Shown piece by piece: positions 1 to 64,000 of a stretch of DNA of 64,000 nucleotides. A program made the position numbers and the translations under genes. The DNA comes from Calothrix sp. NIES-4105 (GTDB lineage Bacteria; Cyanobacteriota; Cyanobacteriia; Cyanobacteriales; Nostocaceae). Within the stretch, counting starts at the first letter, position 1. Each line of letters opens with the position of its first letter. The notes below the pieces were generated by a model. It was given only the letters and a program-made list of their open reading frames with translations. It was not told the DNA's origin and did no database searches. Where the stretch lies: the NCBI RefSeq assembly GCF_002368415.1, contig NZ_AP018290.1, positions 4,353,614-4,417,613 on the forward strand. The letters are read 5' to 3'.

Positions 1-1
1 G

Positions 2-460
2 ATAGCTAAGTTCGTCAGTAATGGCTGGGAGATTTATTTTCACCCGCAATTATTTGGCACTCAGTATCAAGAATTGTTTGACCGTGTTTCTAGTTTGCGT
101 GAAAAATTACCAGAAGCTGAATATAAAACCCACGCAACAGTCAAGTTATTTGCAGCAATTACAGTTGCAATTGAAACCAAAATTTCTTCTGACCCGAAAG
201 CAAGTTCTTTTACGTTAACAGGGGCATTAAAACGATACGGGCGCCTAAAAAAGATGGGTTTACCTTCAAGATACCGTCTGTTTTTTCGAGTGTTTGATAC
301 CCCATTGAAAGCAATTGTCATTTTGTGGCTAGGGTTTCCTCGTAAAGAGGGCGCCAAAGATGATTGTTACGAAGTGTTTACTAAGATGGTAGAGCAAGGA
401 ACATTTCCAAATAGTTTAGATGAATTGGTGCCAGAAACTGATATGACGGAGGATGAATAA
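2..460 (+). CDS. YhaV-family type II toxin, 5' end outside window
   Basis: The frame is open from base 2, so the true start may lie upstream of the window. The visible N-terminus reads SNGWEIYFHPQLF and the C-terminal half carries RYRLFFRVF, then a WLGFPRKEGAKDD stretch and YEVFTKMVEQGTFP. These blocks match the order seen in YhaV toxins, RelE-superfamily ribosome-dependent mRNA interferases that inhibit translation in the cytoplasm. The usual partner, a PrlF/AbrB-type antitoxin, is normally encoded just upstream and would fall outside the window. The visible part is about 153 residues, close to a full YhaV, so little is missing. The family call is fairly firm; activity and the presence of the antitoxin are inferred. 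Confidence 0.8.
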   Translation: MAKFVSNGWEIYFHPQLFGTQYQELFDRVSSLREKLPEAEYKTHATVKLFAAITVAIETKISSDPKASSFTLTGALKRYGRLKKMGLPSRYRLFFRVFDTPLKAIVILWLGFPRKEGAKDDCYEVFTKMVEQGTFPNSLDELVPETDMTEDE

Positions 461-645
461 CAGAATATTCAGAAATATGTTCCTGTGACGCAATTTTCTC
501 AAAATCAAAAGGCATTTGAACTTTTGTACTACAAATAATTTCTCAAAGCTAGCGTTTCACGAGTTATAAAAGTTACATGAGTTTCTGAGTTATAATCAGA
601 AAACTTTAGGTATAATTGTCACTCCAGCTTTGAGGCGCCAACTCT

Positions 646-1218
646 GTGATTGCTATTTATCCCGGAAGCTTTGACCCCGTAACACTGGGGCACCTCGATA
701 TCATCCAGCGCGGTGCTTATTTGTTTGAACGAGTTGTCGTTGCTGTGCTGCGTAACCCGAACAAAACACCTTTGTTTACTGTCCAAGAGCGGATTGAACA
801 AATTCGTAAATCAACTAAGCATCTACCAAACGTTGAAGCTGATAGCTTTGATGGACTAACTGTAAACTATGCTCAAATGAGAAAAGCGCAAGTACTACTG
901 CGAGGATTGCGCGCGATTTCCGATTTTGAGGTTGAACTTCAAATGGCACATACCAACAAAACGCTCTCGACCCAAATAGAGACAGTTTTTTTGGCAACAT
1001 CAAATGAATATAGTTTTTTAAGTAGTAGTGTGGTAAAAGAGATTGCAAAGTTTGGTGGCTCTGTTAATCACCTTGTTCCTCCGCACGTCGCTGACGATAT
1101 ATACCAATGTTACGCCCACAAATACCAATCGAACCAGAGCATAACGGAAAACATCCCGTCTCTCACGAACCCCCCAACCCAAATGTTGGTGGAAAACCAG
1201 AACCCGAGGGATGTTTAA
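646..1218 (+). CDS. coaD: Pantetheine-phosphate adenylyltransferase (CoaD)
   Basis: This enzyme transfers AMP from ATP to 4'-phosphopantetheine, giving dephospho-CoA in the CoA pathway. The nucleotidyltransferase signature is complete: [16 protein letters not shown] at the N-terminus (TxGH-type motif), [18 protein letters not shown] in the middle, and the [18 protein letters not shown] block with the ISSTxxR-like loop in variant form. The start is GTG at 646, chosen because the family begins directly with this strand. Typical CoaD ends near residue 160; here about 30 extra residues follow. That tail lies over the start of the next gene in another frame, so it is probably unconstrained by CoaD function. 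Likely cotranscribed with that gene. Confidence 0.95.
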
Positions 1219-1778
1219 ATATTCAGCAGTCACTTGACCGTTTTGAGGAAATGATTCTTGCTAGTTTCCGCATTCCGTTTACTAAGCGTACCTTAGTGGA
1301 TGAGGAAAAGCTGCTTGACCAGCTTGATTATATTCGTTTGACGTTGCCAACAGCGTTTAATGAGGCAATGGTAATAAATCAACACAGAGAGGAAATTTTG
1401 CTCGAAGCTGAAGAGTACGGACAGCGTATTGTCGATGCTGCTCAAACGAAGCGCGCGCAAATTTTAGAAGAAAGTGATATTATTCGGCAGGCAGAACACG
1501 AAGCTTTGGAGTTAAAGCGTAAGGTTCAGCAAGAGTGTGATTTATTAATGCAGCAAACTCTCGAAGAAATCGACCTTAAACGTCGCCAATGTCAACAAGA
1601 ATTAGAACAAATGCGAGCCGAGGCAATAGAGTCAGCTCAACAAATAGAACAAGGCGCCGATGATTATGCTGATAGTGTTCTCGAACACATCGAGCAAGAT
1701 TTAAATGAAATGACACGTATCATCCGTAATGGGCGCTCATCACTTAATGCTTCGAGATCACCATACAAGGGAAAGTAG
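1107..1778 (+). CDS. Coiled-coil protein encoded behind coaD (DivIVA/AtpF-like)
   Basis: A 223-residue protein that begins inside coaD and overlaps it by 112 bases in a different frame. The first 35 residues are Pro/Asn/Gly-rich. After a short conserved block ([18 protein letters not shown], then [13 protein letters not shown]) the rest is charged coiled coil with heptad spacing ([18 protein letters not shown] and following), resembling the stalk of ATP synthase subunit b or DivIVA-type proteins. It has no membrane segment, so it is not a true AtpF. From memory, cyanobacterial homologues follow coaD and start with a similar MLRP-like N-terminus, which supports this start and the overlap. The function is unknown; a structural role is only an inference from the coiled coil. 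Confidence 0.8.
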
Positions 1779-2073
1779 GGTAAGGTGGGCACTGCCAGCC
1801 CTTGATGGCGCGAACCAATGAACTATGAGCTTAAGCGCTTAAAACCCTTACTAAGTCTGGATTTTAAGTTAAAGCTAAATTTTGAACAGACATTGTGAAT
1901 TAAGGTTTAATTAATCTAAATGTTCTGCTAAAAAGCTAAAATCTATACTTTTTTAGACTAAGCATACTGACTTTTAAATAAGACGACTGCGTAAAAGCTT
2001 GTCGTTTCGTTAAGAGAAAAAAGTAGTATCTGAGTTCGCGCCATCAAGGGCTGGGTGGGTACTGCCCACCTAC
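1775..2073. mobile_element. MITE-like element with 40-base imperfect inverted ends
   Basis: The two ends are inverted copies: a perfect 19-base arm AGCCCTTGATGGCGCGAAC at 1797-1815 and its complement at 2034-2052. The similarity extends outward imperfectly to GTAGG at the left and CCTAC at the right. The roughly 300-base unit has an AT-rich interior with no reading frame. It sits between a gene end and a dead gene tail. The structure suggests a non-autonomous transposon, but I see no clear target-site duplication and no transposase, so it could also be a large transcribed hairpin. Confidence 0.5.
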
Positions 2074-2078
2074 GATTA

Positions 2079-2207
2079 TTACGCGGCAACCATTACCTGA
2101 TTAATTACACCGTACTTTAAAGTTAGCTCGTGAAGCACGCCTACAGTAGCATCTATTTGTTCTACGGTGTGCGCTGCACTTAAGATAAAGCGAATTCTTC
2201 CTTTGTA
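2079..2207 (-). pseudogene. C-terminal remnant of an alpha-oxoamine synthase (BioF/CqsA-like)
   Basis: The minus-strand frame ending in TAA at 2079-2081 reads GRIRFILSAAHTVEQIDATV followed by GVLHELTLKYGVINQ. This is the signature C-terminus of fold-type I PLP enzymes of the 8-amino-7-oxononanoate / 2-amino-3-ketobutyrate synthase family, which condense an acyl-CoA or acyl-ACP with an amino acid. Upstream a stop codon interrupts the frame at once (GGG then TGA), and no further homologous sequence is visible. Only about 42 codons of a gene that is normally about 400 codons survive. The neighbouring KAS III-like and ThDP genes suggest this was the third member of a lost pathway. Confidence 0.65.
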
Positions 2208-2404
2208 CCCTCATCTGATTCTAATTTTAGATTATTTAATCAAACCAAACAAAAACGCTTACTTTACACCATCAACCGCAGAGTGCGCGTTTTGGTATTA
2301 TAAGTAACTTCACTAATTCTTTTATTTGTTTTCCGTAAATACTCTAAAGTATAGCAATTCAATTTAAGTTAACGTAAGGAAACTATACAAAGTCAAGTTT
2401 AATT

Positions 2405-3487
2405 ATGCGTCCTCCAATTGGAATTCGCTCACTCTCGGTTTCGTTCCCAAGCATAATTCGTACAAACGATTACTATAAAGAAAAATATCCGGAGCTATTT
2501 GCTCAAGCCGATAAAAAAAGTTTGGCAAAACTATTTACACCTGCAAATATATCTGCTCCGACCAATGAATATGACTTGGAGATGATGCCGTATCTTCAAG
2601 ACCCATTTCGTGGTGCCGTTCAAAGGCGGGTGCTTGCTCCGAACGAGTCTTCTCTAACGCTAGAATATCAAGCTGCATCAGATGCGCTCAAAGCGGCAAA
2701 TCTTTCTGTAAATGATGTTGACCTATTAATAGTTTGTTCTTTAGCACCTGAATACATTGGCTATGGCAATGCTGCTTTTGTTGCGCGCGAGTTAGGGTTG
2801 AAATGTGGTGCATGGAATTTGGATGCAACCTGTGGCAGCACACTAATCGCATTACAGACAGCCTCTGCCCTAGTGCAAGCAGGAGAGTACAAAAATGTAT
2901 TAGTTGTTGTTTCATGTACTTACTCTCGCGGTGTCGATGAAAGTGATACACTTGCATGGTTTTTCAGCGATGGAGCAGGAGCGTTTGTTGTCAGCGCTTT
3001 GGAAGTTAATCAAGGCATTATAAGTACACATGCAGTTAATACTGGTGTATTGTGCGACCAATTCAAAATCAAAACCTCAAATGATGAGAAAGGAAATACT
3101 CGTCTTCATTTGCGTGTCGCTAGAAACACAAACAAAATGATGGCTGAGACTGCCACAGGACTTTTACGTACATGTTGTGAAGGAGCTATTGAGAAAGCTG
3201 GTCTAACGCTAAATGATATTGACTTTTTTATTTTCAACACCCCTACCGCTTGGTTTTCAAAGTTTTGTATTCGTGTACTGAACATTGACCCAGAGCGTAC
3301 AATTGACGTTTACCCACTTTATTCTAATATTGGTCCAGCATTGACTCTCGCAAATCTTTATCATGCAGCACATATGGGTAAAATTCGGGAGAATGACTTG
3401 ATTTTAATGTATGGTTTTGGCGCCGCTAGTAGTGCTGCTGCAAGCATTATGCGTTGGGGTAACGTTGCTCTAGGTTCTATACCTTAA
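2405..3487 (+). CDS. 3-oxoacyl-ACP synthase III-like protein lacking the His ligand
   Basis: A 360-residue thiolase-fold protein of the KAS III/FabH group. The nucleophile Cys143 lies in NLDATCGSTLIAL and the distal Asn308 in YSNIGPALT, as in FabH. The histidine of the usual PHQAN block is absent: the aligned segment reads FIFNTPTAWF (residues 276-285). Decarboxylating KAS III enzymes use a Cys-His-Asn triad, so this protein may instead transfer an acyl group or use another acceptor; that is inference. It also has a long insertion around residues 45-85. It is not housekeeping fabH by context: it sits between an oxoamine-synthase remnant and a convergent ThDP enzyme gene, which suggests specialised metabolism. 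Confidence 0.75.
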   Translation: MRPPIGIRSLSVSFPSIIRTNDYYKEKYPELFAQADKKSLAKLFTPANISAPTNEYDLEMMPYLQDPFRGAVQRRVLAPNESSLTLEYQAASDALKAANLSVNDVDLLIVCSLAPEYIGYGNAAFVARELGLKCGAWNLDATCGSTLIALQTASALVQAGEYKNVLVVVSCTYSRGVDESDTLAWFFSDGAGAFVVSALEVNQGIISTHAVNTGVLCDQFKIKTSNDEKGNTRLHLRVARNTNKMMAETATGLLRTCCEGAIEKAGLTLNDIDFFIFNTPTAWFSKFCIRVLNIDPERTIDVYPLYSNIGPALTLANLYHAAHMGKIRENDLILMYGFGAASSAAASIMRWGNVALGSIP

Positions 3488-3537
3488 TCTTAATTTGTAG
3501 TTGCGCTTGAGAATAAAGCGCTACTACAAACTTTTAC

Positions 3538-5310
3538 TTATAAATAACAATCACCGCGAAGATTATGAACACGTGGGTTCATTCCAATAACTTGTGTAGC
3601 GTCTATTGGTACCTCAATCAAAATGGATTGAGCAGAGCAGTCATAGCAAGCGTTCATTATTTCCGATAAATTACTTAAGTCTGGCTTCACTTTGTACCCA
3701 TTCCAAGCATGAGCTTTTGCTGCTGCGACAAAATCAATATTTGGTAAATGAGAATGATATAAATCTTTATCAAGTCCTGGAATAATGGACGGCGCCCCTT
3801 GTTCAATTATTCCATAACAATTATTGTTCATAATGAATAAACGTAACCCAAGGCGAGAAGCATCAGCTAACGCACCCCCATATAAACGCCAACACCCATC
3901 GCCGGAAAATACAAACGTATGTAATGATGGGTTTGCCAGCTTGGCACCACAAGCAAGTCCAAAAGCACTACCCATTGCTGAACCATGATACATTGAGTAG
4001 AATTTTATATTCGGGTGGCGACGTTGCATTAAATATGGTCGGTCTTTGTAAGCCATACAGATGTCATCAAAGCCAATGCTATTTGGTTGCCAGTGTTGTT
4101 CTAACTGCTCGTATAAAGATACTAAATCAACTGTATTAGGGTGTACTTGACGAGATATTTTGCGAGTATTTAAACTTTGATAATTAGGTAATAGAAAGTC
4201 TTGATATTTTGGGAAAGGCAGCAGATTTAATATTTCCTGAAGTATTACAGTAATATTACCACGTACTTTACAGTATTTAAAAGCTGTACGATGTTCAAAA
4301 GTTCCATTTTGATGCCCATAAGGATTTTCAAAATCTGTTAAATGCCATACGTACCCAGCTTTGATTTGCTCACAATTAAGTACATACTCATGTGGGTCAA
4401 ACCCAATCATAATCAGCACATCATCTTCATTAATGCTATGCCATAATTCCAACGCACGGTCATTACCACCGAACATGATATGTCCATATCCATAAGGATT
4501 TGTTTCACTGACTGCATTAGCACCATTAGTAGACCAGATAATTGGAGATTTTAGTTTATACGATAATTTATCGATTAATTGGGCAATACCTTCGTACCTT
4601 GCAGCTTCTTCTCCAACATACAGCACAATTCGTTGATTTTTTAATCGAGCTAGGTGGCTAACTAATGCTTCGATATCTAAGTAGTTTACTGAATTATATA
4701 GCTGTGTATGAGAAAATGTTAATTGATTAATATTTATATCTTGTGAAAGTATGTCTGGGTGGAATGCAATCACTACTGGTCGTGACTTTTGCAAAATTTT
4801 ATTAACCATCCGTAGCTTTTCTTCAATAACACTTAAGTCATCAATAACGATACAACCATCACCCAACTCTGCTTTTAATTGTGGAAGCAAGTTCATTCCA
4901 TGCTCTGTGACATCTTGTAATGGAGCTTTATTTTGTACATTGGTAGAATTCAATGCCACTAAAAACACTGCTGGGATGTTATGCAGTTTTGCTTCAGTTA
5001 ATCCGCACAAACCTAACTTAGTCGCGGCGCCTGTTGTTAGGATAGTTCCAGCCAGAGTTCCTGTTGCGAGATAATAGCCAAGGGGAACGAAACCAGCGAT
5101 ATATTCGTTCATAGTCAACATACGTGCGCTTTCATCAACTTGACCAATGTGATTTAATGGCTGTAAATATTGTGCTAGTTTTATAACACCACCACCATTG
5201 ACTCCAGCGTAAGTTTTTATACCTAATGATTGCAGCAGTTTTATTAATGCGAAATTTCCAGATACTAGTTTACTGACATCATTTTTAGCTACATCTTTAG
5301 TTAACAGCAT
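3538..5310 (-). CDS. Thiamine diphosphate-dependent enzyme, acetolactate synthase-like
   Basis: A 590-residue protein with the layout of the acetolactate synthase/benzaldehyde lyase superfamily. The N-terminal Pyr-binding domain has a candidate catalytic Glu60 in QVDESARM, followed by GYYLATGTLAG. The central domain spans about residues 195-350. The C-terminal PP domain has the ThDP signature GDG at about 470-472 through MNNN near 494-497. Such enzymes decarboxylate 2-oxo acids and add the carbanion to a second carbonyl, giving hydroxyketones. It is not the normal IlvB by sequence feel. It is convergent with the KAS III-like gene with only 50 bases between the stops. The substrate is unknown. 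Confidence 0.8.
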   Translation of the reverse strand: MLLTKDVAKNDVSKLVSGNFALIKLLQSLGIKTYAGVNGGGVIKLAQYLQPLNHIGQVDESARMLTMNEYIAGFVPLGYYLATGTLAGTILTTGAATKLGLCGLTEAKLHNIPAVFLVALNSTNVQNKAPLQDVTEHGMNLLPQLKAELGDGCIVIDDLSVIEEKLRMVNKILQKSRPVVIAFHPDILSQDININQLTFSHTQLYNSVNYLDIEALVSHLARLKNQRIVLYVGEEAARYEGIAQLIDKLSYKLKSPIIWSTNGANAVSETNPYGYGHIMFGGNDRALELWHSINEDDVLIMIGFDPHEYVLNCEQIKAGYVWHLTDFENPYGHQNGTFEHRTAFKYCKVRGNITVILQEILNLLPFPKYQDFLLPNYQSLNTRKISRQVHPNTVDLVSLYEQLEQHWQPNSIGFDDICMAYKDRPYLMQRRHPNIKFYSMYHGSAMGSAFGLACGAKLANPSLHTFVFSGDGCWRLYGGALADASRLGLRLFIMNNNCYGIIEQGAPSIIPGLDKDLYHSHLPNIDFVAAAKAHAWNGYKVKPDLSNLSEIMNACYDCSAQSILIEVPIDATQVIGMNPRVHNLRGDCYL

Positions 5311-5743
5311 TTTTTACTCTCTACTTTAACCTAAAATAAGTTTTTTATAAATTAATAATATTTCACTATTTAATACGATTGGTGAAAATTATATAAAAAT
5401 CAAATAGACATTTATAAAAATATTTATATTATTTAAGTTTGTTAGTGCTAAAAATCTTAGTAGTATTACTGATTAAGCAATTAACAATAATCCCAAATTA
5501 AAATATTGTTAACATAAATTTTTAAGTAGAATACTTACGTGAAATATAGTATTCTCGCATTTCTTCCACGCATGTTTGCCTTCAGTTTTCGTAAGTAGGA
5601 ATGACGGGTAAAATCTATTCACTCACGAGTGGTGAGTGCGAAATTCAGGTATTGGATTTTTATGTAGCATTCAGCATTAAAACATAGTGCGTTACGCTGT
5701 CGAATGAGCGCACCTTACGTAATTAAAAAATTAAACAGGATTG
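5311..5743. other. Intergenic region, no gene recognised
   Basis: About 430 AT-rich bases between two minus-strand genes. It holds the promoter of the ThDP gene, which I cannot place. Near 5688-5722 it contains an imperfect palindrome (GTGCGTTACGCTGTCG, then GAGCGCACCTTACG) of a sort commonly scattered between cyanobacterial genes. I see no reading frame or RNA gene. Confidence 0.5.
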
Positions 5744-8700
5744 CTATACAGGAATTGATATTACAAAAGCAGTTCCTTCACCAATAGTTGAATTGACTTC
5801 AATAGTACCTCCATGCTTTTCTTCCACGATTTGACGGACTATTGTTAGTCCTAAACCTGTTCCTTTACCAACACTTTTAGTCGTAAATAGGTGGTCAAAG
5901 ATTTTTGCTTTAACTTCTGGTGTCATTCCTATTCCATTATCTCTAATCGTAATCAAAACGTGACTTTTATCACTATTTAAGCTGGTAAATATTGTGATTT
6001 GCAATGGTGATTGTGTAATCTCATTAAAACTACGTTCGGCATTTGATTCTTCTAATGCGTCAATAGCATTAGCTATTAAATTCATAAAAACTTGGTTTAG
6101 TTGCCCAGGAAAACCCTTAACCTGTGGTAAATCGTCGTAGTTTGTGACTACTTTAATATTTGGACGACCTTCTGATGCTTTTAAACGGTGTTTAAGAAGC
6201 ATTAAAGTGCTATCAATACCTTCATGAATATTAAATAAAACCTTTTTATGAGTATCTGCTCTAGAAAAGGTACGTAAGCTAATGCTTATTTCATAAATTC
6301 GATCAACAGCTTGTTGCATTGATTCAATTACTTTTGGGAAATCTTCTCTTATATAACTGAAGTCTATATCTTTAATCTCTTCAGCAATTTGTGCAACTGG
6401 ATTAGGATAATAATTTTGGTACAAGTCAATTAATTCTAGCAAATTTTGTACATATTCGCGCGCAGGTTGTAAATTACCAGTCAAAAAATTAATTGGGTTA
6501 TTAATTTCATGTCCTATCCCTGCAACTAAATTTCCTAAAGCGGTCATTTTTTCACTTTGGATTAGTTGTAATTGTGCTTGTTTGAGATTTTCAAGTGATA
6601 ACTCTAGCTTTTGAGCATAATCTTGAGATTGTTGATACAACCTTGCATTCTCTAAAGAAATAGCAATTTGAGAACATAGTAGTTTGATAAAATTTAGTCT
6701 GCTTTCTGTAAATACTCCTGTTGCTAGATCATTTTCAAGATATAAAATTGCAACTAATTTTCCTTGGTTTAAAATCGGGTTGCATAATATACTTTGCGGC
6801 TTTTGCTGGAAAACATATTCGTCTTTGTAATTGGTATTTTCAAGTATTGTATTATTGAAAATTACGTGTTCTTTTGATCGTGATACATAATTAATTAAAT
6901 TAACTGGTATTTCTTGACTTTCTTCGATTGGAATTGATTCTAATAATGATTTGACTATTTTTGTAGATAAACCAACAGCTTCAACCACCAGCTTACCAGA
7001 ACTTGGTAAGATTAGCACAGCTTTAGAGGCACCAGCATTTTCTATCAGTACTTGCATCAAACTAACAAGTAATTTTTCTAACTCCATTTCGCTACTAATT
7101 GCTTGGGATGCTTTCACTAAACTTAATAAATCTAAAGAATTAGAGATCCTAGAAGTAGTTTCAGTTATAGTGAAGCTAGTACTATTGCTGATTGCAATAG
7201 TTTCGTAAGAATTAAAGTTTGTTTTGCGCTCTTTAATTGAAGTTAGTAAGTGAGGATATTGTTTTTCTAAATCTTGTAATTTTGCCGACGCACCCCATCT
7301 TGCATAGCAGTAATAAGCGTTAATCAAGTAAGTTTGAGCAATTGTATTTTGATTCCATCCTAAGTAAAATTTTGCTGCAAGCTCTTGAGCTAATGCTTCT
7401 TCCTGAAGATAATCATTTTGTTGAGCAAGTTTTATTGCTTGCTCATAACATTCCATTGCAGCAAGCTTGTTATCTAAAACTCTATGTATCTCAGCTTCTA
7501 CTAAATAGTGTTTGTGCAGGAAATTCATCGGAGCATGATTTGCCCAATGCTGCATTTTTTCTTGATTAGAACGTACTTTTTCCAAAATTTCGTTTTGAAA
7601 CGCTGGAGCCGTATCTAAATATACCGCCAATCTCACTAATGAATCATAATAATAAAAGGCTGGAAAAATTATTAATCCTGTTAATCCACTCAGATATTTC
7701 TCTGCTTTCATAGCATAATCTAAAGCAATATCTGAATTATTGAACAAATAATTAAGTGTACATTTGTTGAAATATACCATGCATATTGCCGTGATATCAT
7801 TCATTTCTTGATGCTGCGGTAACATTACTTGCTCATCATAAGCAGTGCCAACTAAACTACATACATCATCACTTTTATTCATCAAATTTAATATTGTTTG
7901 ATGCCATATTTTAATATAACCAAGACCTGTTTTCTGTTTTAATTGTTTGAGTGTTTCACAGTAAACAGACATTTCCTCTTCAAGCCCAATCAATTCTTGA
8001 CCTGTCAAATATGAACCAAACGAATAATTATGTAGCGCATAGGAAGCAAATTCCAAATCACCAGTTTCCAGACCAATCCGATAAACTTCTTGCAATGGCT
8101 TTAAAAAATCACGTGCATGATTTTTCCAATGTCCTACCAAGCTATTATACAAAAGTAAAGTTTTAGCTTGTAACGAAGCGATGCTAGTTTGGGACAAAAG
8201 ATTTAACGATAGTTGAGCAAATTCGTAACCTGCGTCAATATCACCAATAACACAACACAGTAAAAATCCATAAGTACAGTAACCATTTGCAGAAAGTCCT
8301 GTATTGCCATACTTAATTGATAAGTCAACCATTTTTAAAGTGACTAAAGGCACAAATTCAGGACTGCCAAGATAAGCAGCAGAAAACATACTTGACAAAA
8401 TACGCATAGCTGCTAAGTTCTCAGGGTCAGTCATTTCAGGTAGATTAATTAAATCTGCTATATCCCTACCTATTAACAGTGCTGCTGTTGTTTGAAAAGC
8501 TTGTTGAATATCTAACTCTTTTGGTGTTTTTGGAAATTCTATATTAAGTAGCCTCAACACATCAAGGCTGATATTTAAACCTTCAATTAATTGGTTTTGT
8601 GCAACGCAAGCTTGAATTTTGATTTCATAAACCCTAATTCTATCTATAATTGTCTTTGCTTGGCTAATTACTTGCTGGGCAAACTTCTTCATGTTTTCAA

Positions 8701-51913: not shown

Positions 51914-51975
51914 TAGTAGCGCTTCAGCGCGAAGAGTATTAAAAACATTTAGAGGGCTAAAGCCCAACTACGTAC

Positions 51976-52812: not shown

Positions 52813-52868
52813 AATTATGTTAAAACGTTTATTTTCCAATTTACCAAACTGGCACAGGGGTAGCGCGA

Positions 52869-54434: not shown

Positions 54435-54466
54435 ATAGCTAAATTAGAGAGATTAGGAGGCATATT

Positions 54467-55051: not shown

Positions 55052-55057
55052 CCCGTA

Positions 55058-55081
55058 GCACAGGCGCCTTGGCGCCTGTGC
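55058..55081. repeat. Palindromic hairpin GCACAGGCGCC-TT-GGCGCCTGTGC, copy 3
   Basis: Eleven-base arms around a TT loop just after the DUF1517 stop. It extends the 8-base arms of the copies at 20287 and 42628, and each arm contains one GGCGCC. It may end the pentapeptide-DUF1517 transcript. Confidence 0.78.
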
Positions 55082-55120
55082 AGCCATCTAGAAGATGCTT
55101 CTATGGGTAGAAGGACTGTG

Positions 55121-56857: not shown

Positions 56858-57089
56858 GCTCTAAAAGACGTATGTCTATATATATAGATGAAGTTTATTT
56901 TAACCCAACAAAGGTAGTAATAACCCACTTCCGTTTATAATGAGTAACCCTAGAATATAAGTGATTAGCTTAAAATCATGAGCGCAAATCTAAACATATA
57001 ATGTTGTTCGGTAGCCCACACTGAATAAAAAATGTAAAATTTTGTTAATCTTGAAATGGGATGACTTAAATATGCTCATCAATGTAATC

Positions 57090-57974
57090 ATGAAAGTTTT
57101 GCGTAAATTTACAGTCGTTGTTTTAGCGCTGTCGTTGTGTGTTACAACTGTCGGTTGCGGTGGTGGAGCTAACCAAGTTAGTTCGCAGGCAACACCACAA
57201 ACTCGACAAAGTGCAAACCCTGTTTCTCTGTCGGCAACACCTGCTGATGGTCAATACGAAGTACAACAAGCAAGCTATAACGATGCTGATGGTGTGTATA
57301 CGCTGTTTTTACTCGGTAGTAACCCACCTACTTTTAAGACTGAAAATCTACAAATGGCACGCTTGACTGATGAAGAAGTCCAGCAAGGTAAAAAAAGCTA
57401 CCTGAAAGTAGAAAGTGGCAAGCCCGCTTTATACATAACTCCAGATTTCAAAATCGAATACGTTCATAACGTTACTGAAAATAGAGTTAATCCTCAAACT
57501 GGTCAGCAGGAGACTGTTGTTGTTCGTCAGCAAAGTGGTTTTTGGGCGCCGTTTGCTGGAGCGTTAGCAGGTCAAGCGATTGGCAGTTTATTATTTAGAC
57601 CGCAGTATTACGTGCCTCCTGTGTATCAACCGGGCGGGTTAATTACTGGTTATGGTGGTTACGGTCGTACATATGGCGATGCAGTTTCAAGTTACCGCAC
57701 ACGCTATAACGCGCCTCCTGCGGCAGTTAGAAATCGTACAGCATTCCGTACTACTGGTAATCTACGAACAAACTATCCTAATAACCCAACAATTAGAACT
57801 CAACCAAGAGTTAATACTGGTAGCCGCGCGACGGGTTCCGGTTTTGGTAGCAGCACTTTGCGACCATCGGGTAATTCGAGTTCGGTAAGAAGAAACTCTG
57901 GTAGCAGTTTCGGCAGTGGTGGACGTTCGAGAGTTCCTCGTTCAAGCGGTGGTTTTGGTAGTCGAAGAAGATAA
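57090..57974 (+). CDS. Putative lipoprotein with Gly/Ser/Arg-rich tail
   Basis: A 294-residue protein with a lipoprotein signal (MKVLRKFTVVVLALSLCVTT, lipobox VGC followed by GGG). A folded part to about residue 130 is followed by GFWAPFAGALAGQAIGSLLF, a short hydrophobic segment, then a low-complexity region rich in Gly, Tyr, Asn, Ser and Arg (for example PRSSGGFGSRRR at the end). ATG 57090 gives the lipoprotein signal; longer frames add unlikely residues. It is probably anchored at the outer face of a membrane. The basic tail may contact peptidoglycan or polysaccharide. The function is unknown. Confidence 0.68.
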   Translation: MKVLRKFTVVVLALSLCVTTVGCGGGANQVSSQATPQTRQSANPVSLSATPADGQYEVQQASYNDADGVYTLFLLGSNPPTFKTENLQMARLTDEEVQQGKKSYLKVESGKPALYITPDFKIEYVHNVTENRVNPQTGQQETVVVRQQSGFWAPFAGALAGQAIGSLLFRPQYYVPPVYQPGGLITGYGGYGRTYGDAVSSYRTRYNAPPAAVRNRTAFRTTGNLRTNYPNNPTIRTQPRVNTGSRATGSGFGSSTLRPSGNSSSVRRNSGSSFGSGGRSRVPRSSGGFGSRRR

Positions 57975-57984
57975 TATTTAGTTA

Positions 57985-58102
57985 TGAGTGCTGAGTGCTG
58001 AGTGCTGAGTGCTGAGTATTAAGTTATGAATACAGAAATTTAACTTCTAACTCTCAACTCCGCTCCTCCGCTCCTCAGCACTCAGCACTCGATACTCAGC
58101 AC
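57985..58102. repeat. TGCTGAG-type repeats in inverted arrangement
   Basis: Four tandem TGCTGAG copies at the left and CTCAGCA-type copies at the right, separated by about 60 bases, could form a long hairpin between the convergent lipoprotein and aroF genes. A bidirectional terminator role is possible. Confidence 0.82.
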
Positions 58103-58106
58103 TCTT

Positions 58107-59165
58107 CTAAACTGTTGCTGGAACAGGTTGACTCCAGCGTCCGACAGCTTTACCAATAACTGCTAGTTCTTGCATAAGTTGGTCGAAAGCTTCAGGTGTT
58201 AATGATTGTGGACCATCTGATAATGCTTTTTTGGGATTAGGATGGACTTCTATCATTAACGAATCTGTACCAGCTGCTATTGATGCCATTGCCATTGATG
58301 GTACAAATTCTGACCAACCTGTACCATGACTGGGGTCTATCATTATTGGTAGGTGGGTTAGTTTCCGCAATACAGGTACTACTGATATGTCTAATGTATT
58401 ACGGGTGTATTGACGGTCGAAGGTACGAATACCACGTTCGCACAAAATTACGTTTGCGTTTCCTGCTGCCAATATATATTCTGCTGCCATTAACCAATCT
58501 TCTATTGTTGCTGCCATTCCTCGCTTCAATAACACTGGCTTCGGTTGGGCGCCAACTTTTTTGAGCAGTGAGAAATTTTGCATGTTACGTGCGCCAACTT
58601 GGACGACATCGGCAACTTCAACAATTTTATCTAAGTCAGCAGCATCCATCACTTCAGTGATAATACCAAGTCCACTCGCTGCACGCGCGGCTGCAAGTAG
58701 TTCGAGCGCGCTTTCGCCATGTCCTTGAAAAGCATAAGGTGATGTTCTTGGTTTGTAAGCACCACCACGCAAAAACTTGGCGCCTGCTGCTTTCACACGC
58801 AACGCGACATCAATTATCATTTCCTCGTTTTCAACCGAACAAGGCCCCGCTACTACAGATATTGGATGATTCTCACCAACAATAACAGAGCCTTCGGGAG
58901 TATTAACGATTACTTCTGAAGCCTCACCGTGACGGTATTCGCGACTCGCGCGCTTGTAAGGTTGTTCAACCCGCAATACCTGCTCTATCCAAGGACTTAC
59001 TTCTTGTATTTGTAACGGGTCTAAACTAACAGTCTCACCAACTAAACCAATTACAACCTTGTGTTTACCAACAATTTTTTCGGGCGTTAGTCCCCAAGTC
59101 ATTAGTTCCTCGTTGATGCGGTTTATTTCCGCTTCTGGGGAACCAATTTTCATAACTACAATCAT
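58107..59165 (-). CDS. aroF: 3-deoxy-7-phosphoheptulonate synthase (DAHP synthase, AroF)
   Basis: A 352-residue enzyme for the first step of the shikimate pathway, joining phosphoenolpyruvate and erythrose 4-phosphate. The N-terminal 70 residues are a ferredoxin-like (ACT-like) regulatory domain. The TIM-barrel has VVAGPCSVENEEMIIDVALR, AKFLRGGAYKPRTSPYAFQG (KPRTSP motif), VLLKRGMAATIEDWLMAAEY and PIMIDPSHGTGWSEFVPSMA, with the metal and substrate residues typical of the AroF/KdsA-like subfamily of type I. Length fits. The N-terminal domain implies feedback control by an aromatic amino acid. It ends at a repeat tract and has a perfect palindrome upstream. Confidence 0.94.
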   Translation of the reverse strand: MIVVMKIGSPEAEINRINEELMTWGLTPEKIVGKHKVVIGLVGETVSLDPLQIQEVSPWIEQVLRVEQPYKRASREYRHGEASEVIVNTPEGSVIVGENHPISVVAGPCSVENEEMIIDVALRVKAAGAKFLRGGAYKPRTSPYAFQGHGESALELLAAARAASGLGIITEVMDAADLDKIVEVADVVQVGARNMQNFSLLKKVGAQPKPVLLKRGMAATIEDWLMAAEYILAAGNANVILCERGIRTFDRQYTRNTLDISVVPVLRKLTHLPIMIDPSHGTGWSEFVPSMAMASIAAGTDSLMIEVHPNPKKALSDGPQSLTPEAFDQLMQELAVIGKAVGRWSQPVPATV

Positions 59166-59204
59166 GCTTATATTTCCCTGATTTTACTTAGATTCCCTTT
59201 ACTT

Positions 59205-59237
59205 AGATTCCCGACTTCTTAAAGAAGTCGGGAATCT
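59205..59237. repeat. AGATTCCCGACTTC palindrome, copy 2 (perfect)
   Basis: Perfect 16-base arms AGATTCCCGACTTCTT and AAGAAGTCGGGAATCT around one central A, between the end of the PAM68 gene and the start of aroF. A one-mismatch copy lies at 49483-49515. It could separate transcription of these two genes. Confidence 0.78.
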
Positions 59238-59265
59238 GATTCAAATTTTCAAATAATTATGAAAA

Positions 59266-59733
59266 CTAGACCTTTTTTTGCCGAGTCGCGCGCCAACCCT
59301 CTACCATTCGTCCCCAGTTAGTACCAAATTCGCTAAACCCAAATAAACTTCCAGGCTGTTCGGTGTCCCACGAAGCTGAAAGAACACCATAGGTAATACC
59401 TAATACTCCTAGACCAAATAAGCCCATATTTACCAACAAAACCGCAATTGGAGGTAATTTAATATGAGCGTATGCAGCAAGTAGATAGCTTACTACTAAA
59501 CTAGCAATACCCAAGAATGTTGGAATACCACAAAATGCAGCTACACGTTTAACCATACGGTCACTGACTACTTTTGGAATAGCCATCTCCTCTTTGGTAT
59601 AAGGAGTTCTACCCGCTTTTTTCTCAGGCTTAACTACACCTTGCTTAACAGGCTGTTGCTTTGGTTTGTTAGTCTTCTTTTGCTTGCTTTTTGGTTCAAA
59701 TGGCAAGTTGTTACGTTCTGATTCGGCGGTCAT
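59266..59733 (-). CDS. PAM68-family protein
   Basis: A 155-residue protein with a long basic, Lys/Pro-rich N-terminus (about 55 residues), the conserved block AIPKVVSDRMVKRVAAFCGI, two membrane spans and GSLFGFSEFGTNWGRMVEGW at the end. This is the PAM68 (DUF3464) family; relatives in plants and cyanobacteria help assemble photosystem II and insert CP47 in the thylakoid membrane. It lies 17 bases after rpsO, an arrangement usual in cyanobacteria, so it is probably cotranscribed with the ribosomal gene. Length is normal. The function is from the family. Confidence 0.9.
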   Translation of the reverse strand: MTAESERNNLPFEPKSKQKKTNKPKQQPVKQGVVKPEKKAGRTPYTKEEMAIPKVVSDRMVKRVAAFCGIPTFLGIASLVVSYLLAAYAHIKLPPIAVLLVNMGLFGLGVLGITYGVLSASWDTEQPGSLFGFSEFGTNWGRMVEGWRATRQKKV

Positions 59734-59750
59734 AAGGCAAATATTATACT

Positions 59751-60020
59751 TTATCCACGGATACCAAGGCGAGCAATTAAAGCTTGGTAACGTTCACGGT
59801 CTTCTTGCATGATAAACGATAAAAGGCGCTTACGTTGACCGATTAACTTTAATAGACCACGACGGGAAGAGTGATCTTTTTTATTACCTTGCAAGTGTTC
59901 TGATAGACGCGATATGCGCGCTGTCAGCATTGCTACTTGAACGTCAGAAGACCCAGTATCGGTTTCGTGTACTTGGTACTGTGTAATGATTTCTTGTTTT
60001 CGCTGTTGCGTCAGAGCCAT
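59751..60020 (-). CDS. rpsO: Ribosomal protein S15 (RpsO)
   Basis: An 89-residue protein of the 30S subunit that binds 16S rRNA at the central domain. It reads [60 protein letters not shown] and [12 protein letters not shown], the complete S15 pattern. Length is standard. It heads a two-gene unit with the PAM68 gene. In other bacteria S15 represses its own mRNA through a leader structure; I cannot see such a fold by eye in the 300 bases upstream. Confidence 0.97.
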
Positions 60021-60325
60021 GATTTGAATAGTTTTAAACTAACAGTATTGAGTTAATGCAGCAGTTTCTAATTTTATCACAATGTTTCGGTTATGGGATA
60101 AAAGACAGTCAATCGGCGCCATCAATTTTATTATAGTACTTAAAAACTACCCAAAATCAAGCTTTTGTTAACCTTACTTTATTGTCAAACGAGTAATATT
60201 GTTTAGGAGTTAGTGTAAATACGTAGGGTGTGTGAAAGCTATTACAATGAAGGCAATTAACGCTCATATAAACTGCTTTCACGCACCTCACATAGTCGCG
60301 CGTGCCAGGTTAACAAAGTGGAGTT
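60021..60325. other. Divergent spacer between rpsO and the response regulator
   Basis: About 300 bases carrying both promoters. GTGAAAGC at 60233-60240 can pair with GCTTTCAC at 60275-60282. No gene or strong regulatory site is recognised. Confidence 0.45.
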
Positions 60326-62323
60326 ATGAGAATTCTGGTAGTTGAGGATGACGAACTTATTGTTCAATCGCTTGTTGCAACGCTTGCCCAGTCGCATCAT
60401 AGTGTTGATACTGCGTCTGATGGAGTATCCGGTTTGGAATTTACTCAAGCTTGTAATTATGACTTGATTGTTCTAGACGTAATGCTTCCGAAACTCGATG
60501 GAATTAGCTTGTGTCGCGAAATCCGCAACAATGGTACTATTGCACCAATTATTCTGTTGACTGCTCAAGACAGCAGCAGTAATAAAATCATTGGTTTAGA
60601 TGCTGGGGCTGATGATTATATTACAAAACCTTTTGATTTACAAGAATTAACTGCTCGCATCCGCGCGTTGTTACGTCGAGGTGGCACAGTTTTACAAACA
60701 GTGCTGAAGTGGGAGAATTTACAATTAGACCCAAATAGCTGTGAAGTAACCTATAATGACCGATTAATACGTTTGACTCCCAAAGAGTATAGTTTACTTG
60801 AGTTATTTCTTCGTAATCCCGCACGGACGTTTAGCAGTGGCGCCATTATTGACCATTTGTGGTCACTCGAAGAAACACCGGGAGAAGATACGGTCAGAGC
60901 GCATATGAAAGGATTGCGGCAAAAACTACGCTCTACAGGAGTTACAAATGACCCAATCGAAAATGTTTATGGTATTGGTTATCGTTTAAAGTCTCTTCTG
61001 GATGAAAAGAAGAAAAAATCAAAAAAGACAGAGCAAAACACTACTAATAAAACTACCCCCAACATAATTACAACTCCAAACCCCGCATCAATCAAGCAAA
61101 GTCCACAAATCGCGGCGATTTGGCAACGTTCTCAACAAAAGCTTAGTGATCGAGTTACCAACATCGAATTGGCTTCTTCAGCTTTACTTCAAGATTCAAC
61201 CGATAGTGAGATAATTAACAGCGCTTACCAAAACGCTCATAAGCTGGCTGGTTCTCTAGGTATGTTTGGCTTTATGCTTGCTTCAGGCTTGGCAAGTCAA
61301 ATCGAACAGTTATTGCAAGTTGGCGTATCGTTATCTCAAGAGCAAAAGCTACATTTATCAAAATTGGTTGTAGCGTTGCGGCAGGAGTTACAGCAAAGCA
61401 TCGATACCGAAGGTGCCAAGGTAGATAATCAGGTTAATAATCTTGTAGAACCGACCATCGAACCATTAACAACAGAACTTCAACAATCACATAACACAGG
61501 GCGAGTATTAATTGTTGATGACGATACTAATATACTAGAGATGCTTTCAGAGATACTTAAGCCTTGGGGATTAGAAATTACGACTTTACAAGACCCAAGT
61601 CAGTTTTGGGACACTTTAAAGGCTACAGCACCAGATTTACTCGTGCTTGATGTAGAAATGCCATCTATTAGTGGAATTGAATTGTGTCAGCAATTACAAA
61701 ACGACCCAGAATATAGTCGTATACCAGTATTATTTCTAACTGCTCATTCGAGTCCTGATATTATGCGACTTGTGTTTGCCGCAGGCGCCGATGATTATGT
61801 TAAAAAACCAGTAGTTGCTCCTGAAATAGTCGCGCGTATTCTCAACCGTATTGAACGCACTCGTCGTTTGCGAAACTTTGCCCAAATTGACCCTTTAACT
61901 GGGCTTACTAACCGTCAAAAGTCCACTGGAGAAATCAATCAACTTCTTAAAGAAGCCCAAAATTACAACCAACCTCTATGTTTATCTGTTCTCAAAATTA
62001 TTAATCTTCAACAAATAAATAATAACTATGGTCATACTATCGGCGACCAAATATTATCTATAGCTGCAAAAGTAATTAAAGATACATTTAATGGGCAAAT
62101 TGTCAGTCGGTGGGCTGGTGCGGAATTTATATTATGTTTGTATCAACTAGAGCTAGATATTGTTATAAATTTGGTATTCAACTGTATAGAGGAGATTAAA
62201 CAAAAAGTATTAAAGAATAATCAAATCAAAGTCTTAATTAGTACTGGTGCTTCTCAGTGTATAAAAGACGGTACCAACTTAGAAACGCTGTATAACATAG
62301 CTGCGTCGCGATGTAAAGAATGA
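60326..62323 (+). CDS. Multidomain response regulator REC-HTH-HPT-REC-GGDEF
   Basis: A 665-residue regulator. The first REC (1-120) has Asp51 in DLIVLDVMLPKLDG. An OmpR winged helix follows (130-225; RLTPKEYSLLELFLRNP, YGIGYRLKS). After a Lys/Thr-rich linker comes an HPT domain with phospho-acceptor His in NAHKLAGSLGMFGF, then a second REC (about 390-510; LIVDDDTNILEML, LLVLDVEMPSISG), and a C-terminal GGDEF domain starting IDPLTGLTNRQKST. In the last the GGDEF loop reads WAGAEF, so cyclase activity is doubtful. It is likely a phosphorelay hub. Its stop overlaps the start of the next sensor gene by one base. Confidence 0.9.
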   Translation: MRILVVEDDELIVQSLVATLAQSHHSVDTASDGVSGLEFTQACNYDLIVLDVMLPKLDGISLCREIRNNGTIAPIILLTAQDSSSNKIIGLDAGADDYITKPFDLQELTARIRALLRRGGTVLQTVLKWENLQLDPNSCEVTYNDRLIRLTPKEYSLLELFLRNPARTFSSGAIIDHLWSLEETPGEDTVRAHMKGLRQKLRSTGVTNDPIENVYGIGYRLKSLLDEKKKKSKKTEQNTTNKTTPNIITTPNPASIKQSPQIAAIWQRSQQKLSDRVTNIELASSALLQDSTDSEIINSAYQNAHKLAGSLGMFGFMLASGLASQIEQLLQVGVSLSQEQKLHLSKLVVALRQELQQSIDTEGAKVDNQVNNLVEPTIEPLTTELQQSHNTGRVLIVDDDTNILEMLSEILKPWGLEITTLQDPSQFWDTLKATAPDLLVLDVEMPSISGIELCQQLQNDPEYSRIPVLFLTAHSSPDIMRLVFAAGADDYVKKPVVAPEIVARILNRIERTRRLRNFAQIDPLTGLTNRQKSTGEINQLLKEAQNYNQPLCLSVLKIINLQQINNNYGHTIGDQILSIAAKVIKDTFNGQIVSRWAGAEFILCLYQLELDIVINLVFNCIEEIKQKVLKNNQIKVLISTGASQCIKDGTNLETLYNIAASRCKE

Positions 62324-64000
62324 TGAAAAATCGAAGTGCGAGAAACAAAGGCAATGCGCGAAAACTTTGGCTACCGATTTTGGTAGGTGCCTGTGTATTT
62401 ATTATTAATTTATTACTATGGCAGAGTTTTTTATATCAAGAACAACTTCAAATCAAAAGAAATATTAAAATAGTTACAGAAGGGATAAGGGAAAACATTT
62501 CTTCTCAAATTATTACTCGTACTCATGCGCTTGAGCGAATGGCAGAGCGTTGGGAGTTTAGCGGTGGAACTTCTAGAGGACAGTGGGTTTCGGACGCAAT
62601 AAATTATTTACGCGATTATAAAGGGTACCAGGCACTTGAATGGGTAGATAATTTGGGTTTTGTGCGTTGGATAATACCCCAAAAAGGTAATGAAGGAGTA
62701 GAAAATCGCGCTTTGCTGTTTGAACCACAGCGTCAAAATGCGATGAATACAGCGCTCAAAACGGGTAATCCAAGTATGACGGGCGTAGTTTCTCTAATTC
62801 AAGGTGGTAAGGGTTTTTTGATTTATGTACCTTTATTTTTAAAGAATAATACTTTTGTTATTAATCAAATCAACGGTGCTGTTCCACAGAATTTCGACGG
62901 GTATATTGTTGGTGTACTTCAAAGTCAAACTATTCTCGATACGATTATAAATAAAAATTTAATGCACGAGTATGCAATCGCTATTTTTGATCAAGACAAG
63001 GAGTTTTATAGCAACGAACTTTATCGGCGCCTGAATGACAAATTTATTAATAAATGGAGCTATGAAACCTTAGTCGAACAGAACGGTGTAAAGTGGCGCC
63101 TGCGTGTGGCACCAACAAAAGCGCTCCTTGCCAAACAACATTCTCCTCTCACTGATATGATTTTAGTTGGCGGTTCTATAGCAGCCATTCTCATCGCATC
63201 CGTAGTATCTATGACCCTTAGTCTACGACGCTACGCAAGTAGAGTTGAGCAAAGTAACCTTAATTTATCGTGCGAAATTACCGAACGGCAAAAAGTAGAA
63301 GCATCGCTACAGCAATCCACCGCACAACTTGAAGACTTGTATAATAATGCACCTTGTGGTTATCATTCTCTAGATCAAGACGGTATATTTATTCAAATTA
63401 ATGATACCGAACTTAAATGGTTAGGTTACAAACGCGAAGAAGTAATAGGTAGAAAGGTAACAGATTTCTTCACTACCGAGAACCAGCTTGATTTTGAAAC
63501 AAGTTTTTCTGAACTCAAAACGCGCGGTTTTCAAAGAGATTTAGAACTTTTATTAATTCGTGCGGATGGAACAAAGATGCCTGTTCTTGTTAGTGCAACT
63601 GCGATTAAAGATGCAGCAGGAAACTTTGTAATGAGTCGAAGTACGCTTTTTGATATTAGCCAGCGTAAACAAGCTCAAGATGCACTTAAGATCAGCGAAG
63701 AGCGTTTTCGCAGTGCATTTGCAAACGCATCAATTGGAATGGCATTAGTTTCACCTGAAGGTCGCTGGTTACAAGTTAATGAGTCGTTGTGCCAAATGAT
63801 TGGTTATTCTAAGGAAGAATTATTAGCAACAACTTTTCAAGTAATTACGTATCCAGATGATTTAGAGATTGATTTGAAGTATGTGCATCAAATGCTCAAA
63901 GGGGAAATTTCTACTTATCAGATGGAAAAGCGGTATTTCCATAAACTTGGACATATAGTATGGATTTTACTAAGCGTCTCATTAGTCTGGGAAGCAGGCA
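62323..64000 (+). CDS. CHASE-PAS-PAS sensor protein, 3' end outside window
   Basis: The frame opens with ATG 62323, whose A is the last base of the preceding stop (TGATG), and stays open to the window end (559 codons). Order: a transmembrane helix (LWLPILVGACVFIINLLLWQ), an extracellular CHASE-type domain (about 35-255; THALERMAERWEFSGG, FDGYIVGVL), a second helix (DMILVGGSIAAILIASVVSM), a coiled coil, and two PAS domains (LEDLYNNAPCGYHSLDQDGI; EERFRSAFANASIGMALVSP) with PAC-like ends. A histidine kinase or GGDEF output presumably follows beyond the window. Translational coupling suggests that it feeds the multidomain regulator. The CHASE ligand is unknown. Confidence 0.85.
   Translation, partial: MKNRSARNKGNARKLWLPILVGACVFIINLLLWQSFLYQEQLQIKRNIKIVTEGIRENISSQIITRTHALERMAERWEFSGGTSRGQWVSDAINYLRDYKGYQALEWVDNLGFVRWIIPQKGNEGVENRALLFEPQRQNAMNTALKTGNPSMTGVVSLIQGGKGFLIYVPLFLKNNTFVINQINGAVPQNFDGYIVGVLQSQTILDTIINKNLMHEYAIAIFDQDKEFYSNELYRRLNDKFINKWSYETLVEQNGVKWRLRVAPTKALLAKQHSPLTDMILVGGSIAAILIASVVSMTLSLRRYASRVEQSNLNLSCEITERQKVEASLQQSTAQLEDLYNNAPCGYHSLDQDGIFIQINDTELKWLGYKREEVIGRKVTDFFTTENQLDFETSFSELKTRGFQRDLELLLIRADGTKMPVLVSATAIKDAAGNFVMSRSTLFDISQRKQAQDALKISEERFRSAFANASIGMALVSPEGRWLQVNESLCQMIGYSKEELLATTFQVITYPDDLEIDLKYVHQMLKGEISTYQMEKRYFHKLGHIVWILLSVSLVWEAG

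What the first reader, a model, noticed from the sequence alone, without database searches (positions are those of the whole stretch)
1..64000. GGCGCC is a highly iterated palindrome here, and HIP1 seems absent
By eye I count about 90 GGCGCC sites spread evenly over 64 kb, in genes and spacers. If bases were independent at about 40% GC, about four would be expected. GCGATCGC (HIP1), which fills most Nostocales genomes, was not found. CGCGCG-containing strings also look frequent. This suggests a lineage where another palindrome has taken HIP1's place, perhaps tied to a matching DNA methyltransferase, as proposed for HIP1.
Basis: partly seen in the sequence, partly recalled or inferred. Interest (0 to 1): 0.75.

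Follow-up and report, generated by a model that had tools for sequence, protein, structure and literature searches.

The report
GGCGCC palindrome standing in for HIP1
In one genus of filamentous cyanobacteria the short DNA word GGCGCC occurs about every 650 bases in place of the usual cyanobacterial repeat HIP1; this was already reported for one strain, and here it is found in all seven genomes of the genus that are held, alongside a DNA-methylating enzyme predicted to mark an inner C of the word.

Summary
GGCGCC occurs 94 times in the window (5.7 expected by shuffling) and 18,131 times in the 12-Mb genome; HIP1 is absent from the window and near-absent genome-wide (125). New here: all 7 held genomes of that genus carry it (7,475-20,380 copies), the 210 other held genomes of the family do not (at most 1,053), so it is a genus trait, not sporadic. 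All 7 have a BsaHI/HindV-type GRCGYC cytosine methyltransferase without its restriction enzyme, and lack a methyltransferase (probably CGATCG-specific) present in 208 of 210 relatives. Among five close species the inner C (the base M.BsaHI methylates) shows excess C-to-T change (76 observed, 43 expected; in four of the five), the outer bases change 2-4 times less than expected, and at 86% identity sites are shared about twice as often as control hexamers. This fits methylated sites that erode by deamination yet are maintained over the long term. Whether selection or methyl-directed repair maintains them is open; no methylome was available.

The parts
240..63100 (.). 94 isolated GGCGCC sites (first 240-245, last 63095-63100), in ORFs and spacers
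1..64000 (.). GCGATCGC and CGATCG absent (0 each); GATC 28 and GGCC 18 copies, both strongly avoided
910..63526 (.). 48 CGCGCG matches: over-represented, but not conserved like GGCGCC and not protected; taken as a separate background feature
31001..51000 (+). 20 kb used to find the corresponding stretches in the six other genomes of the genus, the anchor for the site-conservation comparison

Best explanation
GGCGCC is an alternate HIP that replaced HIP1 in the ancestor of this genus (my label: the Dulcicalothrix / Calothrix PCC 7103 group). Steps: (1) the lineage lost the near-universal methyltransferase that is probably the CGATCG m5C enzyme tied to HIP1, and HIP1 disappeared [both absences shown; specificity and order inferred]. 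(2) It kept a solitary BsaHI/HindV-type m5C methyltransferase without its endonuclease, at a shared genomic place in six of seven genomes [presence and missing partner shown; GRCGYC specificity inferred from homology and recognition motif]. (3) The enzyme methylates the inner cytosine, GG(m5C)GCC [inferred: shown for M.BsaHI in print; the same base is the C-to-T hotspot here]. (4) Deamination keeps turning GGCGCC into GGTGCC, but such losses do not pile up with divergence, and changes at the outer bases, which GRCGYC recognition needs, are 2-4 times rarer than expected, so the sites are maintained [shown as pattern]. (5) The maintaining force is selection for the methyl mark, or mismatch repair guided by it as Elhai proposed [not resolved]. 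I think a methylation-coupled process is likelier than selection on the bare DNA word.
For: Genome-wide excess and HIP1 absence. 7 of 7 genus members have 7,475-20,380 copies; the other 210 family genomes have at most 1,053. HindV-type enzyme in 7 of 7, HindVP endonuclease in 0 of 7; one copy from each of the seven forms one clade (100/100), six of the seven with shared flanks; same recognition motif as the copy beside a HindVP gene on an E. coli plasmid. Putative CGATCG enzyme A2 absent in 7 of 7, present in 208 of 210. M.BsaHI methylates the central C of GRCGYC (PMC2413257). 213 ancestral sites in five close species: inner C>T 76 v 43.2 expected (p 4e-6); outer C>T 9 v 35.8 (p 1e-7); inner transversions 3 v 12.0 (p 0.002); outer transversions 6 v 13.0 (p 0.03). 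Outer C>T is below expectation in 5 of 5 species, inner C>T above it in 4 of 5. Sharing at about 86% identity 0.72-0.79 v 0.36-0.41 for hexamers with five G/C. Given the same peptide, hexamer identity 0.85/0.91/0.87 v 0.56/0.61/0.19.
Against: No methylome: methylation is inferred. Inner C>T is not in excess in D. desertica PCC 7102 (8 v 11.6) and is strongest in PCC 7103 (24 v 8.7); without PCC 7103 it is 52 v 34.4, p 0.003. Overall terminal-branch loss of GGCGCC is no lower than for controls (0.073 v 0.083 and 0.070 per site-branch); maintenance shows only at greater distance and at the outer bases. The enzyme should also methylate GACGCC, GGCGTC and GACGTC, which are rare here (0.06-0.16x), so specificity alone does not explain why only GGCGCC abounds. 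110 terminal-branch changes away stand against 3 clean gains (of 13 places with GGCGCC in one close species only), so the building-up is not seen. 16 relatives have the enzyme (apparently broken in three) without the endonuclease and no GGCGCC excess (at most 277), so it is not sufficient. Within this family the co-occurrence is one evolutionary event. Four low-HIP1 genomes of the order still have A2.
Confidence: 0.65

Rival explanations
1. Elhai's ratchet as the whole story: mismatch repair directed by G-m5C favours mutations that create GGCGCC; the sites are an epiphenomenon without function.
For: Needs methylation of the inner C (shown for M.BsaHI) and protection of finished sites; outer bases and inner transversions are protected while deamination of the methylated C escapes. 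Second-position C>T, which stays within GRCGYC, looks unprotected (12 v 14.4; differs from outer at p 0.006), but that contrast was chosen after seeing the data and half of the 12 are in PCC 7103 (6 v 10.5 without it).
Against: Gains are almost unseen (3 clean ones v 110 changes away), though saturation could explain that. GGTGCC to GGCGCC is not clearly faster than background (1 of 30 v 13 of 1,743 site-branches, p 0.21).
Confidence: 0.35
2. Purifying selection on the methylated site (chromosome organisation, replication, repair or expression) keeps GGCGCC; recent losses are mildly harmful variants not yet removed.
For: Most GGCGCC/GGTGCC dimorphic sites among close species have a single species changed, and the share of sites with that difference does not grow with divergence (my arithmetic: 0.08-0.33 of sites at about 95% identity, 0.12-0.25 at 86%, 0.14-0.34 at 82%); conservation given the peptide.
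Against: Fast reversal would look the same; spacing is random (CV 1.03) and sites are denser in genes than outside, which suggests no positional role.
Confidence: 0.4
3. Very-short-patch (Vsr-like) repair turns T:G into C:G in GGTGCC and so builds GGCGCC.
For: The commonest one-step difference is GGTGCC/GGCACC (360 of 475 in pairwise counts, which are not independent).
Against: Such repair should deplete GGTGCC; it is 1.56x over-represented (104 loci), and polarised changes run C to T. No Vsr family among ten ORFs scanned at the chromosomal enzyme's locus, three of which matched no family; the genome as a whole was not searched for Vsr.
Confidence: 0.05
4. Codon usage, Gly-Ala dipeptides or CpG-rich composition produce the word.
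For: 136 of 217 framed sites read Gly-Ala.
Against: All three frames and spacers carry it; the reversed word occurs 7 times in the genome; conservation exceeds that of the same peptides otherwise encoded; CGCGCG, 13x over composition, is not conserved likewise.
Confidence: 0.02

Closest known systems
GGCGCC alternate HIP of Calothrix PCC 7103 (Elhai 2015, PMC4390886; abstract, 12 passages and sections 12, 13, 18 part 1 of 2 and 19 read)
   Same: Same word, same genus, HIP1 and CGATCG depressed, GATC avoided, more than one GRCGYC methyltransferase.
   Different: Reported there for one strain (plus 19 kb of Calothrix D253) and as sporadic, not in clades; here 7 of 7 genus members.
HIP1 (GCGATCGC) with orphan GATC and CGATCG methyltransferases
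   Same: A GC-rich palindrome at roughly one per kb, tied to orphan methyltransferases (Elhai 2015).
   Different: Different sequence and enzyme; HIP1 is near-absent here.
BsaHI / HindV / HgiDI GRCGYC restriction-modification systems (PMC2413257; parts 1-3 of 4 read)
   Same: Methyltransferase homologous (54.5% over 90% of its length to a gene annotated hindVM), same type of recognition loop.
   Different: No HindVP endonuclease in any of the seven genomes; GGCGCC is enriched rather than avoided.
rCCGGy alternate HIP of Oscillatoria PCC 10802 (Elhai 2015)
   Same: HIP1 low, methyltransferase target enriched.
   Different: Other motif; not settled on the full palindrome.

Membership tests
Alternate HIP (Elhai 2015) | One GC-rich palindrome grossly over-represented genome-wide | tested here: met
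   18,131 copies; in 364 kb 26.9x composition, 19.0x second-order Markov
Alternate HIP (Elhai 2015) | HIP1 depressed or absent | tested here: met
   125 in 12 Mb; the 17 family members sampled have 1,285-6,655
Alternate HIP (Elhai 2015) | Genome encodes a methyltransferase able to methylate the word | tested here: met
   Three full-length HindV-type genes (and a broken remnant) in this genome, by homology and recognition motif; activity not tested
Alternate HIP (Elhai 2015) | Word is methylated in vivo | not testable with these tools
   No methylome; only the C>T signature at the inner C in relatives
BsaHI/HindV-type GRCGYC m5C methyltransferase | Homology and shared recognition loop | tested here: met
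   54.5% identity to a hindVM-annotated gene; same type of loop (RR or RK, A/G, IFSIDEPSPTI, NRP) in 39 of 40 rows incl. one copy from each of the seven genomes; the 40th is a fragment; E. coli copy the same type
BsaHI/HindV-type GRCGYC m5C methyltransferase | Methylates the central C of GRCGYC | not testable with these tools
   Shown for M.BsaHI in print; mutation spectrum agrees
GRCGYC restriction-modification system | Cognate HindVP-type endonuclease present | tested here: not met
   0 of 7 genus genomes; 43 of the other 210 have a match, 42 over the cut-off
HIP1 | Sequence GCGATCGC at high frequency | tested here: not met
   0 in window, 125 in genome
Product of Vsr-type very-short-patch repair | Depletion of the C-to-T variant of the site | tested here: not met
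   GGTGCC 1.56x over second-order expectation

The most novel reading that the evidence does not exclude
HIP is a replaceable role rather than a sequence: a cyanobacterial lineage can exchange its genome-wide methyl-mark palindrome by losing one orphan methyltransferase and taming another (a GRCGYC enzyme stripped of its endonuclease). The new palindrome is then held through speciation of a whole genus in a balance between deamination of the methylated C and a restoring force tied to the methylation.
Probability: 0.37. Interest if true: 0.72.

Novelty: new member of a known kind. Interest (0 to 1): 0.48.

Why it matters
What HIP sequences do is still open. Elhai argued from their sporadic occurrence that alternate HIPs do not persist and that HIP1 itself is selected. 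A genus in which all seven held genomes keep GGCGCC weakens that argument. It also offers seven genomes, several from culture collections, in which one enzyme, one motif and one mutational signature can be tested against each other.

Tried and rejected
CGCGCG/GCGCGC as a second HIP: over-represented (13x and 8x composition), but shared between this genome and the five close species at 0.34-0.45, like controls, and with no significant protection (29 and 16 sites; small numbers). Against this, they are shared at 0.62 with G299 (n = 32), which I cannot explain. Vsr-type repair: GGTGCC is enriched, not depleted. Enzyme alone as cause: 16 relatives have it without the endonuclease and lack the excess; in three of them (G331, G339, G358) the gene is in two pieces or holds stops. 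An independent GGCGCC switch in G059: its GGCGCC count is high (9,489), but in 72 kb the excess is of GGCGCY and its GC is 54%, so I do not count it as a replicate. Two smaller polarised analyses with 85 and 91 sites were superseded by the 213-site one; the directions at inner and outer bases agree. The second-position contrast weakened when broken down by species; confidence was lowered from 0.68 to 0.65 and the novel case from 0.40 to 0.37 for that and for the uneven inner C>T excess. GGTGCC-to-GGCGCC restoration rate: too few sites. PDB search of the enzyme gave only general C5 methyltransferases, NCBIfam essentially only the general dcm family. Pairwise counts reuse species and are not independent. 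Regular spacing: not found.

Full report
OBSERVATION. The window (64 kb, GC 38.6%) holds 94 GGCGCC, 0 GCGATCGC and 0 CGATCG. Dinucleotide-preserving shuffles give 5.69 GGCGCC on average and at most 12 in 100. The whole genome (G000, 12,037,678 bases, 8 contigs) has 18,131 GGCGCC against 7 of the reversed word and 125 HIP1 against 75 of its reversed word. In 364 kb from this genome (window plus 15 fetched stretches) there are 543 loci, 26.9x the base-composition and 19.0x the second-order Markov expectation; spacing is random (CV 1.03). The other GRCGYC members are scarce (GGCGTC and GACGCC 0.16x, GACGTC 0.06x), GATC is 0.12x and GGCC 0.16x, while GGTGCC is 1.65x composition and 1.56x second-order.

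KNOWN ALREADY. Elhai 2015 (PMC4390886; outline, 12 passages and sections 12, 13, 18 part 1 of 2 and 19 read) describes GGCGCC as an alternate HIP in Calothrix PCC 7103, with two GRCGYC methyltransferases and a broken CGATCG methyltransferase, and proposes G-m5C-directed mismatch repair. He states that exceptional HIPs occur sporadically, not in clades. Searches 'highly iterated palindrom'+'GGCGCC', 'Calothrix'+'GGCGCC' and 'Calothrix'+'HIP1'+'methyltransferase' (from 2015) each returned only that paper, so within that library I found no later work on it; most subscription journals are not held.

WHICH ORGANISM AND HOW WIDE. Contig lengths identify the six other held genomes of the genus: G297 = Calothrix sp. 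PCC 7103 (Elhai's strain), G301 = Calothrix sp. PCC 7716, G296 = Dulcicalothrix desertica PCC 7102, G298 = Calothrix sp. HK-06 NIES-2101, G299 = MAG Calothrix sp. C42_A2020_038, G300 = MAG Calothrix sp. FI2-JRJ7. Of the 217 held genomes of the family, the 7 of this genus have 7,475-20,380 GGCGCC and the other 210 have at most 1,053 (G318, whose reversed control is 1,270). In 20-kb samples HIP1 was 0 in 6 of 6 other members; a 21-kb PCC 7103 locus had one. All 17 other family members drawn have 1,285-6,655 HIP1; HIP1 was not counted in the rest of the family. The switch is therefore a genus trait. In the order sample (243 genomes) 11 genomes have under 250 HIP1, this one included.

METHYLTRANSFERASES. 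This genome has 17 PF00145 matches. Three full-length products (C1:10505816-10506772, one on contig C2, one on C3) form one set, 59-61% identical to the C1 one; a broken fourth lies on C3. The C1 one is 54.5% identical (over 90% of its length) to an E. coli plasmid gene annotated 'modification methylase HindV' beside HindVP (similar plasmid). BsaHI and its HindV-type homologues recognise GRCGYC (PMC2413257 parts 1-3 of 4), and H. influenzae Rd, the HindV host, is listed with a validated GRCGYC motif (PMC8565308, one passage seen). With the three as alignment A1, 62 of 217 family genomes have a relative: 7 of 7 in the genus and 55 of 210 outside. The RE_HindVP family has a match in 43 of 217, 0 of 7 in the genus; 39 of the 55 outside carriers also have it, 16 do not. 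Those 16 have 2-277 GGCGCC (median 61.5), so a lone enzyme is not sufficient, although in three of them (G331, G339, G358) the gene is in two pieces or holds stops. A tree of 40 proteins puts one copy from each of the seven genus genomes in one clade (100/100); six of the seven share flanking DNA, G298's copy sits on a 16.8-kb contig without that flank; the other genus copies form a second group (91/82). The recognition loop is the same type in 39 of 40 rows (the other is a fragment) and in the E. coli copy, so I infer GRCGYC, not a narrowed GGCGCC specificity. Of ten ORFs scanned around the C1 enzyme, seven match families, none of them restriction or Vsr; a BrnT/BrnA pair and a RuBisCO-like gene lie beside it, and three ORFs match nothing.

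THE LOST PARTNER. A second C5 methyltransferase (alignment A2, from three HIP1-family relatives) occurs in 208 of 210 family genomes outside the genus and 0 of 7 inside (Fisher p 9e-12, not corrected for shared ancestry). In the order sample it is missing from 7 of 11 low-HIP1 genomes and 17 of 232 others (p 1e-5). In these searches only the best 7-8 candidates per genome were scored. I take it to be the CGATCG enzyme because it tracks HIP1; its specificity was not tested. Four low-HIP1 genomes (G018, G182, G192, G230) have it, which counts against a strict one-to-one rule.

SITE DYNAMICS. Corresponding DNA of five close species (94-96% identical), this genome and G299 was aligned. GGCGCC is shared at 0.78-0.88 among close species, 0.72-0.79 between them and this genome, and 0.53-0.72 with G299; hexamers with five G/C fall from 0.67-0.75 to 0.36-0.41 to 0.23-0.28. 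Given the same peptide, the hexamer is identical in 0.85/0.91/0.87 of cases in the three frames (259 of 305, 70 of 77, 80 of 92), against 0.56/0.61/0.19 for the same peptides otherwise encoded (available for 305, 51 and 58 cases). CGCGCG plus GCGCGC, also over-represented, are shared at 0.34-0.45 between this genome and the five close species, like controls, but at 0.62 with G299 (n = 32).

MUTATION SPECTRUM. With more sequence and G296 as reference, 108,771 columns were usable and 213 ancestral GGCGCC sites were followed on terminal branches of the five close species, with this genome as outgroup; the window's own genome is thus not among those polarised. Expectations match trinucleotide and codon position. 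Inner C>T: 76 observed, 43.2 expected (p 4e-6). Inner transversions: 3 v 12.0 (p 0.002). Outer C>T: 9 v 35.8 (p 1e-7). Outer transversions: 6 v 13.0 (p 0.03). Second-position C>T, which leaves a GRCGYC site: 12 v 14.4; second-position transversions 4 v 7.1 (neither significant). By species: outer C>T is below expectation in 5 of 5; inner C>T is above it in four (G297 24 v 8.7, G298 21 v 8.5, G301 12 v 7.0, G300 11 v 7.3) and not in G296 (8 v 11.6). Leaving out G297, inner C>T is 52 v 34.4 (p 0.003), outer C>T 7 v 27.7 (p 3e-6), and second-position C>T 6 v 10.5, so the outer/second contrast (p 0.006, chosen after seeing the data) leans on PCC 7103. Four control palindromes (16-64 sites each) reach no significance at inner or outer bases; AAGCTT has 0 v 3.8 second-position T>C, p 0.02. 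M.BsaHI methylates exactly the inner C, the point Elhai listed as unknown for this specificity. Overall terminal-branch loss of GGCGCC is like that of controls (0.073 v 0.083 and 0.070), and 110 changes away stand against 3 clean gains (of 13 places with GGCGCC in one close species only). Yet sharing stays high with distance, so losses seem to be purged or reversed later. One test of reversal was too small to decide (1 of 30 v 13 of 1,743).

READING. Shown: the word, its genus-wide range, the presence and absence of the two enzymes, the spectrum, the conservation. Inferred: GRCGYC specificity, in vivo methylation of the inner C, A2 as the CGATCG enzyme, order of events. Open: whether selection or methyl-directed repair maintains the sites, and why GGCGCC rather than the other GRCGYC members is kept; Elhai's G-m5C idea is the only explanation I know for that last point.

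Noticed in passing
G059 (order sample): loci L059, L147, L161-L163: A cyanobacterium of another family with HIP1 nearly absent (74) and A2 missing has a different HIP-like word, GGCGCY (GGCGCC 139 loci, GGCGCT/AGCGCC 308, AGCGCT not enriched; CGGCGCCG 15x) in 72 kb, and a diverged HindV-type methyltransferase with no HindVP match in five neighbouring ORFs scanned.
   Followed up: partly
G136: loci L064, L148: HIP1 low (81), A2 missing, RCCGGY members enriched (GCCGGT 4.8x, GCCGGC 3.0x in 30 kb), and two adjacent C5 methyltransferase genes, one HindV-type; resembles Elhai's Oscillatoria PCC 10802 case.
   Followed up: partly
window, 48 places from 910 to 63526: CGCGCG is 13x over composition in this genome and among the top words in 5 of 6 other genus samples; not conserved among close species but shared at 0.62 with G299 (with GCGCGC, n = 32); cause unknown.
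   Followed up: partly
G297 (PCC 7103) stretches, alignment: PCC 7103 has the largest excess of inner C>T loss at GGCGCC (24 v 8.7 expected) and D. desertica PCC 7102 none (8 v 11.6), as if methylation or repair differed between close species.
   Followed up: no
L164 (G301:C2) and AP025019.1: The plasmid copy of the HindV-type methyltransferase in Calothrix PCC 7716 is split into two ORFs, annotated as hypothetical proteins.
   Followed up: no
window and 300 kb more of G000: GATC (0.12x) and GGCC (0.16x) are strongly avoided, and several six-base palindromes (e.g. CCGCGG, CCATGG, GTCGAC) were absent from 364 kb, suggesting past or present restriction.
   Followed up: no
G182, G192, G230: Three 2.8-3.1 Mb genomes of one genus have few HIP1 (103-142), no clear replacement palindrome in 20-kb samples, and still carry the A2 methyltransferase.
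   Followed up: no
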